A DNA stretch of 64,000 nucleotides from Gloeobacter morelensis MG652769. Lineage in GTDB: Bacteria; Cyanobacteriota; Cyanobacteriia; Gloeobacterales; Gloeobacteraceae. This document shows, in pieces, positions 43,741 through 46,280 of this stretch; position 1 is the stretch's first letter; each line of letters begins with the position of its first letter. The stretch lies in NCBI RefSeq assembly GCF_021018745.1, contig NZ_CP063845.1, positions 372,001-436,000 of the forward strand, given 5' to 3'. The notes under the pieces were generated by a model, which did no database searches, was not told the origin of the DNA, and saw nothing but the letters and a program-made list of their open reading frames with translations. A program made the position numbers and the translations under genes.

Positions 43741-44976
43741 ATGGAAACCCTCGGGCTTGCACCAAGGTTGCGTTCGCTGAGCCAGGCCCTGGCCGCCGGT
43801 CCCCCCTTCGCCGAGCAACTGCAGGCGGCGGGCAGCCGCACCTGGTCGATGGCCGTCGCCGCCCTCGCGGGCTTTCTGGGGGAGCATCCGGCACGGGTAG
43901 TCCTCTTTGCCGGCGGTAAATTCGATCTGGCCGCTTTGAGTGCGGCGGGCGCAGCGGCACCAAAGCTCTGGCAATTTCAGACGCTGCTGGCCCACAAACC
44001 CCAGGGCGAGGTAGTCGTTCCTTTGAGCGCGGGCGATCCACTGGCCGATGAGAATTTTCTGGTGGTGATCGCCCACGACTTTTGCCTGGTGCTCTGCCAC
44101 CGCAGCCCGACGCTGCAGTTTTCTTTTGAAACGGCGGTGGTGCGCCGCGCCTGTACCGTGCTGCGCCAGCGGCTGGTGATCACCCGTCCTGACCGGTTGG
44201 CCGCTTTCGATCGCGCCCTCAGCCACCTGCCGCTGGCGAGCGTGCGGCTGTTGTCGCGCTTCAGCCGGGCTCTGCTGGCGGAGGGCTCGCGCGCCCAGGA
44301 GTCGATCGACGGCAGCGAACTCGATTTTCTCGAATTGCTCGCCCACGAAGTGCGTACACCACTGACTACGATTCGCACGCTCACCCGGCTGGTGCTGCGC
44401 AAAGGCGGGCTCACGGAGGCCGCGCGCACCCATCTGGAGGCGATCGACCGCGAGTGCGCGCTGCAGATCGAGCGCTTTGAGCTGTTGGCCCTCGCCATGG
44501 ACCACGAGCAGGGCGAGTTGGCCCTCAGACCCCAGGCGGTGGCCGTCGATGAACTGCTCCTGGGCTGTCTGGAGCGCTGGCGCGAGCAGGCCGATCTGCG
44601 CGGGCTGGCCCTCGATGTCGATCCGCCCGCCGAACTGCCGCGTGTGCACGCCGATCAGCTGCTTTTAGAGCGGATCCTGGGCGGTCTTGTGGACCGGCTG
44701 GTGCGCAGCCTGCCTTTTGGTAGCCACATCCAACTCAAAGCCGAGCGGGCCGGTTTCTGGCTCAGGGTGCGCATCGAGATCACCGGCGGTTCGGTCGAGG
44801 ATTCGGCGGCGGCGGACGCCAATCCCTTTCGGGTCGATTCCCAGGCCGGGGCGGTCACCCTCAGGCTGCCGGCGGCCCAGGGCCTGGTGGCGGCAATGGG
44901 CGGCAAACTCACCCTGCGCCTGCGCCCCGAGGGCGAAAGCAGTACGCTGACGTTGTACCTTCCCATTCAAAGTTGA
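43741..44976 (+). CDS. Histidine kinase with sensory N-terminus and degenerate ATPase part
   Basis: The 411-residue product has a DICT-like sensory region (about 1-150, with ENFLVVIAHDFCLVLC) and a dimerisation/H-box helix with His202 (LLAHEVRTPLTTIRTL). The C-terminal third has the outline of a HATPase domain, but the N-box Asn is missing (ILGGLVDRLVRS) and no DxGxG G1 box is found. It may dimerise and accept phosphate but probably cannot bind ATP normally. The next gene starts 1 base after its stop. Confidence 0.75.
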   Translation: METLGLAPRLRSLSQALAAGPPFAEQLQAAGSRTWSMAVAALAGFLGEHPARVVLFAGGKFDLAALSAAGAAAPKLWQFQTLLAHKPQGEVVVPLSAGDPLADENFLVVIAHDFCLVLCHRSPTLQFSFETAVVRRACTVLRQRLVITRPDRLAAFDRALSHLPLASVRLLSRFSRALLAEGSRAQESIDGSELDFLELLAHEVRTPLTTIRTLTRLVLRKGGLTEAARTHLEAIDRECALQIERFELLALAMDHEQGELALRPQAVAVDELLLGCLERWREQADLRGLALDVDPPAELPRVHADQLLLERILGGLVDRLVRSLPFGSHIQLKAERAGFWLRVRIEITGGSVEDSAAADANPFRVDSQAGAVTLRLPAAQGLVAAMGGKLTLRLRPEGESSTLTLYLPIQS

Positions 44977-44977
44977 C

Positions 44978-45616
44978 GTGGATTTCGACCGCCTCGCCCA
45001 CCAGTTGCGCAACCCCGTGATGGTGATCCGCACCCTCGCGCATCTTGTGGGCAAGCGCCTCGGGCCGGACGATCCCAACCAGGTACTGCTCGAGCAAATA
45101 ACCCGCGAGTGCCGCCGCCTCGACGCGCTGCTGGAGGACCAACTGGAGGTGCGCGCGCCGGGTGCGGTGCCGCTGGAGCCGCTGGTGGCCGAGGTGGAGC
45201 GGGCGGCAATCGCCCTGGCGCGCGAACGGCAGATCCACTTCGAGCGGGAAGGCCAGGCGTCCTGTCGGGTCAAAGCCGACGGACGCGCCCTCTACGAAGT
45301 ACTGATGAACCTGCTCGACAACGCCTTCAAGTACACCCCGGCGGGGGGGCAGGTGCGCCTGGAGGTGCGGCCCGGCCAGAATGCCTGCACCATCGATATC
45401 GCCGACACCGGCGGCGGCATCGAGGCGGCCGATCTCGAACGCATCTTCGACGCCTACTACCGCGGCAGCCGCAACGGCGATCGGCCCGGTCGGGGGTTGG
45501 GGCTCGCCATCGCCCGCGACCTTATCGAGCAAATGGGGGGCTCTATCGATGCGCGCAACGGCGAAGGCGGCGGCAGCCGCTTCTGTGTAACCTTACCCAC
45601 TGCCCAGGAGGACTGA
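44978..45616 (+). CDS. Minimal histidine kinase without sensor domain
   Basis: The 212-residue product starts (GTG) right at its H-box, MDFDRLAHQLRNPVMVIRTL (His8), and has a complete ATPase domain: N-box LLDNAFKYTPAGG, G1 IADTGGGIE, G2 PGRGLGLAIARDL. There is no sensor or membrane segment. It lies between the degenerate kinase and the response regulator, 1 base from each, so the three should be made together. A heterodimer with the upstream kinase would complement its missing sensor. Confidence 0.88.
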   Translation: MDFDRLAHQLRNPVMVIRTLAHLVGKRLGPDDPNQVLLEQITRECRRLDALLEDQLEVRAPGAVPLEPLVAEVERAAIALARERQIHFEREGQASCRVKADGRALYEVLMNLLDNAFKYTPAGGQVRLEVRPGQNACTIDIADTGGGIEAADLERIFDAYYRGSRNGDRPGRGLGLAIARDLIEQMGGSIDARNGEGGGSRFCVTLPTAQED

Positions 45617-45617
45617 C

Positions 45618-46280
45618 ATGGCCGCTCATCTGCTGCTGGTCGACGACGATCCCGGTATTCGCCTGGCGCTGCAGGCCTATCTGGAGGACGAGGGCTTCGG
45701 CGTCACCACCGCCCGCAACGCTATCGAAGGGCTGGAACTGGCCGAAAAACACCAGCCGGACCTGGTGATCACCGACATCATGATGCCCCAGGTGGACGGC
45801 TACCGGTTTCTACAGAAATTGCGCGCCCTACCGCGCTTTCGCTATACGCCGGTGGTGTTTCTGACCGCCAAGGGCCAGATTGCCGATCGCATCCAGGGCT
45901 ACCGCCACGGCTGCGACGCCTACCTGCCCAAGCCCGGCGACCCGGAGGAACTGGTGGCCATCGTGCGCAACCTGCTCGATCGATCGCGCCAGGTCCAATC
46001 GGAGATCGTCAGTTTGGTGAGCGAACTGAACCATCGCCCGGCCCCGGTGGCCATCGAAGCGATCGACCTGGATCTCACCCCCCGCGAGCAGGAGGTGCTG
46101 CTGCTGGTCTACGCGGGTCTGATGAACAAAGAAATCGCCGGCCGCCTGGAGCGCTCCACCCGCAACGTCGAGAAGTATGTCAGCCGCCTGCTCGCCAAGA
46201 CCGGCACCAGCAGCCGCACCGAGCTGGTGCGCTTCGCCCTCGAACACGGCCTGGTCAGCCCCGGCAGCGCTGCGGGTTAA
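45618..46280 (+). CDS. NarL/LuxR-type response regulator
   Basis: The 220-residue product has a receiver domain (1-125) with acidic pocket DDD (9-11), phospho-acceptor Asp53 (LVITDIMMPQVDG) and the conserved Lys (FLTAKGQ). A LuxR-type helix-turn-helix follows (about 153-215, LTPREQEVLLLVYAGLMNKEIAGRLERSTRNVEKYVSRLL). It is the probable output of the two upstream kinases. Its targets are unknown. Confidence 0.93.
   Translation: MAAHLLLVDDDPGIRLALQAYLEDEGFGVTTARNAIEGLELAEKHQPDLVITDIMMPQVDGYRFLQKLRALPRFRYTPVVFLTAKGQIADRIQGYRHGCDAYLPKPGDPEELVAIVRNLLDRSRQVQSEIVSLVSELNHRPAPVAIEAIDLDLTPREQEVLLLVYAGLMNKEIAGRLERSTRNVEKYVSRLLAKTGTSSRTELVRFALEHGLVSPGSAAG

What the first reader, a model, noticed from the sequence alone, without database searches (positions are those of the whole stretch)
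43741..46280. Degenerate sensor kinase paired with a sensor-less minimal kinase
The first kinase has a sensory region and an H-box His but lacks the N-box Asn and G1 box. The second is only 212 residues, starting at its H-box, with a full ATPase domain. The genes are 1 base apart and followed 1 base later by a LuxR-type regulator. A split kinase, in which one protein senses and the other phosphorylates, is a simple reading.
Basis: partly seen in the sequence, partly recalled or inferred. Interest (0 to 1): 0.55.

Follow-up and report, generated by a model that had tools for sequence, protein, structure and literature searches.

The report
Stress sensor and kinase split between genes
In early-branching cyanobacteria, a stress sensor that looks unable to use ATP sits in one operon with a working kinase that has no sensor and with the gene switch they are thought to control, which suggests that a signalling system inherited by chloroplasts may have begun as a two-protein kinase.

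Summary
Gene 1 is the Hik34 orthologue: sensor plus H-box, no usable ATP-binding motifs. Gene 2 is the GAF-less "class II" Hik2, relative of the chloroplast sensor kinase. Gene 3 is Rre1/Ycf29. The names rest on published Synechocystis primers mapped onto relatives and on trees. The degeneracy is family-wide: of 140 unique Hik34 ORFs, 139 keep the acceptor His and 1 has DxGxG. Hik34 occurs in 184 of 386 phylum genomes. The contiguous order Hik34–Hik2–Rre1 was found in 8 of 8 genomes of two families; of 80 named loci, only 4 show it, all among those 8. In the three more distant of five comparisons Hik34's "dead" ATPase domain is better conserved than Hik2's live one. Most likely Hik34 senses, Hik2 spends ATP, and Rre1 is the output; whether Hik2 phosphorylates Hik34's His is unproven, and Hik34 is reported to autophosphorylate in vitro. 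GAF-less Hik2 is in print; the operon link to Hik34 was not found in ten library searches.

The parts
43741..44976 (+). Gene 1 (K1): Hik34 orthologue, 411 aa
   Evidence: translation; family alignments A1/A4; slr1285-flank primers abut the start of the orthologue in L316
43741..44235 (+). K1 sensory domain, residues 1-165: predicted alpha/beta domain, weak DICT sequence match, TrmB/PLD-like fold matches
   Evidence: AlphaFold2 pLDDT 87.8; VIA best Z 9.9 to TrmB sugar-binding domain; Pfam DICT E 0.014
44242..44508 (+). K1 helical stalk and DHp, residues 168-256
   Evidence: HisKA E 2.8e-7; model helices 168-187, 193-220, 226-256
44344..44346 (+). codon of His202, the phospho-acceptor (HEVRTP)
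   Evidence: H in 139 of 140 unique family ORFs, one gap
44518..44973 (+). K1 degenerate catalytic domain, residues 260-411: N-box Asn is Arg319, no G1, no G2
   Evidence: 354-360 and 364-372 under pLDDT 50; best-conserved part of K1 in the three more distant comparisons
44978..45616 (+). Gene 2 (K2): class II Hik2 without GAF, 212 aa, GTG start
   Evidence: K2 plus Hik2 one clade, UFBoot 100 / SH-aLRT 99; profile match to Hik2 E 9e-65
44999..45001 (+). codon of His8 of K2 (HQLRNP)
   Evidence: invariant in 7 of 7 aligned K2
45260..45613 (+). K2 intact ATPase domain: NLLDNAFKYT, DTGGGI, GRGLGLAIA
   Evidence: HATPase_c 1e-29
45618..46280 (+). Gene 3: Rre1 (Ycf29) orthologue, 220 aa, receiver plus LuxR HTH
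   Evidence: Pfam; one clade with the Rre1 of other class members, SH-aLRT 99
45633..45968 (+). Rre1 receiver domain
   Evidence: Response_reg 4.3e-29
46074..46238 (+). Rre1 GerE/LuxR DNA-binding domain
   Evidence: GerE 1.7e-15

Best explanation
The three genes are an operon for one signalling module, Hik34–Hik2–Rre1, in what is probably its ancestral, split form. SHOWN by sequence: K1 is Hik34, with a sensor and a phospho-acceptor but no usable ATP-binding motifs; K2 is a Hik2 with a complete ATPase but no sensor; the third gene is Rre1. INFERRED: K1 and K2 form a mixed complex. K2 binds ATP. K1 reads the signal (heat or other proteotoxic stress, by analogy with Synechocystis and Synechococcus Hik34) and sets how much phosphate reaches Rre1. 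The version I think most likely is a split kinase: the catalytic domain of K2 phosphorylates His202 of K1, and K1, which also keeps the phosphatase Thr (HExxT), adds phosphate to Rre1 or removes it. Phosphorylation of Rre1 by K2's own His8 may run in parallel. In later cyanobacteria the genes dispersed and Hik2 has a GAF redox sensor, the form related to chloroplast CSK.
For: Identity: published Synechocystis hik2 primers for H185Q and G359A match L173 except at the one mutated base each; the longer G361A primer differs at two bases of the mutated codon and at two others. L173 has His185 and its G1-box Gly at 359. Primers for the neutral site "near slr1285" map to the ORF-free stretch directly upstream of the K1 orthologue in L316, outer pair 0 and 2 mismatches, inner pair 3 and 4. 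K2 plus Hik2 form one clade, UFBoot 100 / SH-aLRT 99, against 22 other kinases (99 in the 94-row tree). The RR falls with Rre1. Linkage: contiguous in 8 of 8 f1 and f28 genomes. Of the 9 order genomes, 6 (f1) have all three and 3 (f2, f3) show none by these tests. Mechanism: of 140 unique Hik34 ORFs E+1 is kept in 137 and T+4 in 139, while DxGxG is found in 1 and GxGxG in 1; controls: 44 and 54 of 54 Hik2/K2, 50 and 50 of 51 other kinases. In HisKA kinases the H+1 acid is required for kinase activity and T/N+4 for phosphatase activity (PMC3510030, abstract). Hik2 outside f1 and f28 has Q at +1 in 47 of 47. K1's catalytic domain is 83/81/74% identical to G003/G007/G006 against 55/57/48% for K2's. 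Top PDB fold matches of K1 are DivL and RetS bound to the GacS DHp. HisKA proteins without HATPase that keep HE/DxxN/T were proposed as possible split bifunctional kinases (PMC3591291, passage).
Against: Recombinant Synechocystis Hik34 is reported to autophosphorylate in vitro despite lacking ATP-binding motifs (PMC4390874, PMC3264485, passages). Recombinant Synechocystis Hik2 autophosphorylates on its own His185 and passes phosphate to Rre1 without Hik34 (PMC4751278, passages), so Q at +1 does not abolish it. Family f20 (G093, G249) has a GAF-bearing Hik2 and no detected Hik34. Hik34's DHp is not clearly closer to Hik2 or K2 than to other kinases (median 22.1 bits for 8 K2, 15.6 for 46 Hik2, 14.7 for 51 others). 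In the f28 K2 the +1 residue is E (2 of 8 K2), so the complementary wear is not universal. Fold matches to DivL and RetS lie within the general HK fold: the ordinary kinase ZraS ties with the RetS complex and ranks first in the PDB sequence search. In the two closest comparisons K1's catalytic domain is not better conserved than K2's (98.0 vs 98.3% with G004; 95.4 vs 96.6% with G005).
Confidence: 0.5

Rival explanations
1. K1 is an allosteric sensor subunit, not a phosphate carrier. It binds K2 through its DHp or catalytic domain and turns K2's autokinase or phosphatase activity up or down, as RetS does to GacS and DivL to CckA (both recalled). Phosphate flows ATP to K2 His8 to Rre1.
For: Hik2 is sufficient to phosphorylate Rre1 in vitro (PMC4751278, passages); top PDB fold matches of K1 are DivL and the RetS:GacS complex; K1's dead catalytic domain is its best-conserved part in the three more distant comparisons, as expected of a binding surface.
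Against: An allosteric subunit need not keep His, E+1 and T+4, yet these are kept in 139, 137 and 139 of 140 family ORFs.
Confidence: 0.25
2. Hik34 is a non-canonical but genuine kinase: its altered catalytic domain still binds ATP and phosphorylates its own His, and K1 and K2 are two parallel inputs to Rre1.
For: Reported in vitro autophosphorylation of Synechocystis Hik34 (PMC4390874; PMC3264485); strong conservation of the altered catalytic domain in the more distant comparisons; N-box Asn kept in 75 of 140 members.
Against: DxGxG in 1 and GxGxG in 1 of 140 members; Gloeobacter has Arg at the N-box Asn; single G1 or G2 Gly changes abolish Hik2 autophosphorylation (PMC4751278); the lid region is poorly ordered in the model.
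Confidence: 0.2
3. K1 is mainly a phosphatase for Rre1~P (HExxT intact, no kinase half), opposing K2 as a separate protein.
For: T+4, required for phosphatase activity in HisKA kinases, is kept in 139 of 140 (PMC3510030 abstract); loss of Hik34 raises heat-shock transcripts in Synechocystis (PMC3264485, passage).
Against: E+1, reported as needed for kinase but not phosphatase activity, is kept in 137 of 140. As recalled from Kobayashi 2017, not read here, loss of Hik34 lowers Rre1 activation by heat in Synechococcus elongatus, which a pure phosphatase would not do.
Confidence: 0.1

Closest known systems
Hik34 (slr1285) of Synechocystis and Synechococcus elongatus
   Same: Same family by sequence; HisKA present, ATP-binding motifs absent; acts with Rre1 (PMC3264485, PMC4390874, PMC5904244, passages)
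   Different: Here it abuts a class II Hik2 and Rre1; the published statement that Hik34 has no orthologues in other bacteria (PMC4390874) does not hold (184 of 386 phylum genomes)
Class II Hik2 (PMC5904244: Gloeobacter violaceus, Synechococcus JA-2-3B'a and JA-3-3Ab), and the chloroplast sensor kinase CSK
   Same: K2 is this protein: Hik2 kinase core, no GAF
   Different: PMC5904244 does not use the word 'operon', and in the passages that name Hik34 it does not tie it to class II Hik2; here its gene partners are shown
Rre1 / Ycf29
   Same: LuxR-type regulator, one clade with the Rre1 of the 21 other class members and 2 f28 members placed in the tree
   Different: Encoded next to its kinases, which in 76 of 80 named Hik34 loci it is not
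Split histidine kinase CheA3:CheA4 of Rhodobacter sphaeroides (PMC3591291, abstract and passage)
   Same: ATP-using and His-bearing functions lie on two proteins
   Different: K2 keeps a complete HisKA with its own His; K1 keeps a folded remnant catalytic domain; complex formation untested
Pseudokinase regulators DivL and RetS
   Same: Degenerate kinase acting on an active partner (recalled); nearest solved folds
   Different: K1 keeps HExxTP; DivL has Tyr for His (recalled)

Membership tests
Hik34 | HisKA with phospho-acceptor His but no ATP-binding motifs (PMC4390874) | tested here: met
Hik34 | orthology to slr1285 | tested here: met
   one family member per genome in 183 of 184 positive genomes (two matches in G344); slr1285-flank primers abut the family member in L316; full-length K1 orthologues by single-protein search and full-length match to the family members
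Hik34 | control of heat-shock genes through Rre1 | not testable with these tools
   literature only (PMC3264485, PMC5904244 passages)
Hik2 / CSK, class II | falls in the Hik2 kinase-core clade | tested here: met
   UFBoot 100 / SH-aLRT 99; E 9e-65
Hik2 / CSK, class II | no GAF domain | tested here: met
   212 aa, no GAF match; none in the f28 or G006 K2 either; GAF found in 12 of 12 class I members of A3 and 2 of 2 f20 Hik2
Hik2 / CSK, class II | phosphotransfer to Rre1 | not testable with these tools
   shown for Synechocystis class I (PMC4751278 passages)
Rre1 / Ycf29 | receiver plus LuxR HTH within the Rre1 clade | tested here: met
   one primer match in a relative
Split histidine kinase (CheA3:CheA4 type) | His-bearing protein lacks ATPase; partner has ATPase | tested here: met
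Split histidine kinase (CheA3:CheA4 type) | partner lacks its own phospho-acceptor | tested here: not met
   K2 keeps HisKA and His8; so not filed as a member, only as possibly working like one
Split histidine kinase (CheA3:CheA4 type) | physical complex and trans-phosphorylation | not testable with these tools
   no complex prediction or bench work available
Pseudokinase regulators (DivL, RetS) | degenerate catalytic domain acting on a partner kinase | tested here: inconclusive
   fold matches rank first and second but lie within the HK fold, with ZraS tied; action untested
DICT sensory domain | Pfam PF10069 above its curated cut-off | tested here: not met
   15.7 bits against cut-off 23.8, residues 92-121 only; 4 of 40 members at E up to 0.1
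PLD / TrmB-like fold (sensor domain) | clear structural match | tested here: inconclusive
   best VIA Z 9.9, rmsd 3.0, 117 aligned; no Foldseek hit under 0.001

The most novel reading that the evidence does not exclude
The cyanobacterial and chloroplast Hik2/CSK–Ycf29 pathway began as an obligate two-protein kinase: Hik34 as sensor and phospho-acceptor, GAF-less Hik2 as the ATP-using half. Hik34, wherever it occurs, is still phosphorylated in trans by Hik2, so that one of the most widespread cyanobacterial stress pathways runs on a mixed kinase complex that has gone unrecognised.
Probability: 0.3. Interest if true: 0.8.

Novelty: new variant of a known kind. Interest (0 to 1): 0.6.

Why it matters
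Hik34 and Hik2 have each been reported as acting upstream of Rre1, and Hik34's published activity is puzzling because it lacks ATP-binding motifs. An operon that joins the two with Rre1, in lineages where Hik2 has no sensor, gives a concrete and testable answer: they are two parts of one device. It also bears on the published suggestion that Hik2, relative of the chloroplast sensor kinase, may have started without its redox sensor, and it offers a small natural system (three adjacent genes) in which to reconstitute the pathway.

Tried and rejected
Local decay of gene 1: rejected; the loss of G1/G2 is family-wide and the domain is under strong constraint. Gene 2 as a mis-called start: its frame opens only nine codons upstream of the GTG, with no ATG/GTG/TTG there, and the short form recurs in f1. 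Hik34 as a sister paralogue of Hik2: not supported; in the 94-row tree Hik34 sits on a long branch outside the Hik2 clade. Monophyly of f1 and f28 K2: unresolved (52/12), so GAF gain after the split versus GAF loss is not settled. Sensor domain as GAF: no GAF match by sequence in 40 members; by fold no GAF row is among those listed, which excludes nothing. Complete loss of GAF as a mark of f1 and f28 alone: f22 Hik2 also gave no GAF above cut-off in 5 of 5 scanned, though an N-terminal stretch of about 130-180 residues is present there. Promoter scan of the operon: no consensus match, uninformative. Rre1 forward primer: no good match in the relatives (3 or more mismatches in 8 loci tried), so the primer evidence for Rre1 is one reverse primer (1 mismatch, L319; 2 in L317) plus the tree. 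Hik2 C-terminal primer: 6 or more mismatches in the same 8 loci. Papers not held: Suzuki 2005 and Bairagi 2022; Kobayashi 2017 and Hasegawa 2024 were not looked up and are known here only through other papers or recall. Rows dropped: A5 left out two short rows of A4 (L082, L125); the 41-row tree used a hand-picked subset of the 118 sequences gathered and left Hik34 out; the 94-row tree thinned Hik2 to 22 rows; the RR tree took 38 rows, about every second locus.
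Full report
What is there. Three genes on the + strand, each one base from the next: a 411-aa degenerate histidine kinase (K1, 43741-44976), a 212-aa kinase core (K2, 44978-45616) and a 220-aa LuxR-type response regulator (45618-46280). K1 keeps the H-box (HEVRTP, His202) but has Arg319 where the N-box Asn belongs and no G1 or G2 signature. K2 starts seven residues before its H-box His and has complete N, G1 and G2 boxes. The genome is 5.1 Mb in 3 contigs. The closest named relative in hand (99% identity over K1) is a MAG titled Aphanocapsa lilacina HA4352-LM1, followed by two Gloeobacterales MAGs; I read the genome as Gloeobacter-like.

What K1 is. A K1-family profile matches 184 of 386 phylum genomes at E up to 1e-40, one match per genome except G344, which has two. 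The only same-class genomes among the misses listed are G093 and G249 of family f20 (182 further misses are not listed by the tool). A re-search of 30 genomes found it in 29, including some of 1.7-1.9 Mb, and not in G093. Two papers use a neutral site "near slr1285" (PMC4689873, PMC8363721, passages); the first gives the primers. The outer pair maps to L316 with 0 and 2 mismatches (1 and 1 in L314), bracketing a stretch without an ORF of 90 aa or more upstream of the K1 family member and ending next to its start codon; the inner pair has 3 and 4 mismatches. slr1285 is Hik34 (PMC3264485, passage). PMC4390874 (passages) describes Hik34 as having only the HisKA motif and no conserved ATP-binding motif. 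K1 is therefore the Hik34 orthologue. The statement there that Hik34 has no orthologues in other bacteria no longer holds.

What K2 is. Published Synechocystis hik2 primers (PMC4751278 section 5) match L173 except at the one mutated base for H185Q and for G359A; the longer G361A primer differs at two bases of the mutated codon and at two others. L173 has its H-box His at 185 and its G1 Gly at 359, so that family is Hik2. K2 of f1 and f28 falls with Hik2 in one clade: SH-aLRT 99 among 94 rows, UFBoot 100 / SH-aLRT 99 among 41 rows. All 12 members of the Hik2 alignment carry GAF; K2 has none. At E up to 1e-60 the Hik2 profile matched 73 of 188 phylum genomes, and not G000, G185 or the 11 f22 genomes listed. 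At a looser threshold the nine f22 genomes tested have a divergent Hik2 (best E 1.5e-54 to 1.4e-43); the six f22 sequences placed in the tree fall with Hik2, and five scanned have an N-terminal stretch but no GAF above cut-off. GAF-less Hik2 in Gloeobacter violaceus and two Synechococcus strains was already named class II Hik2, with the suggestion that it may be ancestral and that these strains diverged early (PMC5904244, section 19 and passages). In my trees the other Hik2 form one clade (97/92) and K2 lies outside it, but whether f1 and f28 K2 form one clade is unresolved (52/12), so gain versus loss of GAF stays open.

What the regulator is. It falls in one clade with the best hits of the 21 other class members and the f28 members placed in the tree (SH-aLRT 99; 28 of 38 rows); a hit at E up to 1e-35 was present in 89 of 194 phylum genomes. 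A published Rre1 reverse primer matches L319 with one mismatch; the forward primer matches none of the eight loci tried (3 or more mismatches). I take it as Rre1/Ycf29 (the two names are equated in PMC2677595, passage).

The operon and its distribution. K1-K2-RR are contiguous in 6 of 6 f1 genomes (G000, G003-G007) and 2 of 2 f28 genomes (G185, G340); gaps range from -1 to 53 bases in the six loci measured besides the window. In three other genomes of the same order (G001, G002, G008) there is no K1 orthologue (best E 1.9e-12 to 2.0e-11), the best regulator is 47-48% identical and falls outside the Rre1 clade, and the best Hik2-profile hits are long other kinases. So in this order the three genes are present together or absent together, 9 of 9. 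Of 80 named loci with up to 10 kb of flank, 4 have K2 and Rre1 beside K1 (L049, L050, L051, L076). By contig position these are the same genomes as G004, G007, G006 and G340, so they add no independent cases. One further locus, L052, has Hik2 4.6 kb away. Some of these loci have short flanks. Of the 73 genomes with a Hik2 match, 72 are Hik34-positive; the exception is G093, whose Hik2 has GAF. No genome with Hik34 and without any Hik2 was met among those tested for both (three f22 genomes were not tested at the looser threshold, and Hik34-positive genomes outside these calls were not tested for Hik2).

Clues to mechanism. In 140 unique Hik34 ORFs from the loci held at the time, the acceptor His is present in 139 (one gap), Glu at +1 in 137 and Thr at +4 in 139. 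The N-box Asn is present in 75, with Arg in 40 and Lys in 12. A pattern count over their catalytic regions finds DxGxG in 1 and GxGxG in 1 of 140; the same patterns are in 44 and 54 of 54 Hik2/K2 and in 50 and 50 of 51 other kinases. These sequences are related, so the counts are not independent. In HisKA kinases the +1 acid is needed for kinase activity and the +4 Thr/Asn for phosphatase activity (PMC3510030, abstract). Conservation of the +1 acid in a family without an ATP site suggests that the His is still phosphorylated, which would need an outside ATPase. Hik2 outside f1 and f28 has Gln at +1 in 47 of 47; K2 has Gln in 6 and Glu in 2 of 8. The wear is thus roughly complementary, but Synechocystis Hik2 does autophosphorylate on His185 in vitro and passes phosphate to Rre1 (PMC4751278, passages), so Gln does not abolish it.

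Constraint. Against G003, G007 and G006 the catalytic domain of K1 is 83, 81 and 74% identical, its DHp 80, 73 and 65%, its sensor 70, 59 and 49%; K2's intact catalytic domain is 55, 57 and 48%. In the two closest comparisons (G004, G005) the two catalytic domains are within about one point of each other, K2's slightly higher. A domain that has lost its chemistry but changes least over distance is likely to be a binding surface or an altered, still working site.

Structure. AlphaFold2 gives K1 a mean pLDDT of 82.7, a DHp hairpin and a catalytic fold with 354-360 and 364-372 under 50. Its first PDB matches are DivL and RetS bound to the GacS DHp, pseudokinases that act on partner kinases (recalled); the ordinary kinase ZraS ties with the second, and a sequence search of the PDB puts ZraS first, so this is only suggestive. 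The sensor domain (pLDDT 87.8) has no Foldseek hit under 0.001. VIA puts TrmB first (Z 9.9), then polyphosphate kinase 1 and the nuclease NucT (9.3, 9.1), a little above the usual background of 7-8. A sub-threshold DICT match points to a ligand-sensing role but does not meet the family cut-off.

Verdict on mechanism. Shown: the identities, the operon, the family-wide loss of ATP motifs with retention of HExxT, and the stronger constraint on K1's catalytic domain at some distance. Inferred: a K1-K2 complex, K1 as sensor, K2 as the user of ATP, and trans-phosphorylation of His202. Against: reported Hik34 autophosphorylation, Hik2's sufficiency in vitro, Hik2 without Hik34 in f20, and no special DHp similarity between the two. 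I put 0.5 on K1 as non-ATP-using sensor partner of K2 with phosphate reaching K1's His, 0.25 on a purely allosteric K1, 0.2 on Hik34 as an unorthodox kinase and 0.1 on a pure phosphatase; these overlap.

Prior work. Ten full-text searches of the held library were made, of which some aimed at these proteins. In the listings, passages and sections that I saw, no paper reports the Hik34-Hik2-Rre1 operon or a Hik34-Hik2 split kinase. Most of the listed papers I saw as listings only; most subscription papers are not held, and Kobayashi 2017, Bairagi 2022, Hasegawa 2024 and Suzuki 2005 were not read.

Noticed in passing
window 46345-48471 (+): A 708-aa type I phosphodiesterase (PF01663, 2.7e-31) follows the operon. 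In L160 (G022) a long ORF (21-4889) that begins with a similar 'GAHGYD...DVAPT' stretch lies about 4.5 kb from the Hik34 gene.
   Followed up: no
window 43124-43585 (-): A 153-aa protein that looks to have a signal peptide and holds a CxxC motif, with no Pfam match, is divergent from the operon with 155 bp between.
   Followed up: no
window 48526-49402 (+): Neighbouring short proteins share the motif 'QTAVGxQ', look secreted and repetitive, and have no Pfam match.
   Followed up: no
L052, L053, L072, L096, L100, L119, L128 (downstream of K1): In many Nostocales and some others Hik34 is convergent with another histidine kinase of about 460-540 aa on the opposite strand.
   Followed up: partly
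L052:3701-5032: In Calothrix brevissima NIES-22 a Hik2 (443 aa, 555 bits to the Hik2 profile) lies 4.6 kb upstream of Hik34 on the same strand.
   Followed up: partly
G001, G002, G008 (families f2, f3 of the same order): These genomes seem to lack Rre1, Hik34 and Hik2, although Hik2 is described as present in all cyanobacteria (PMC4751278 abstract); the genomes are 93-99% complete.
   Followed up: partly
L293, L294, L296, L300 (f22 genomes): The Hik2 of these small-genome relatives has an N-terminal stretch of about 130 residues with no GAF match at E up to 0.1.
   Followed up: no
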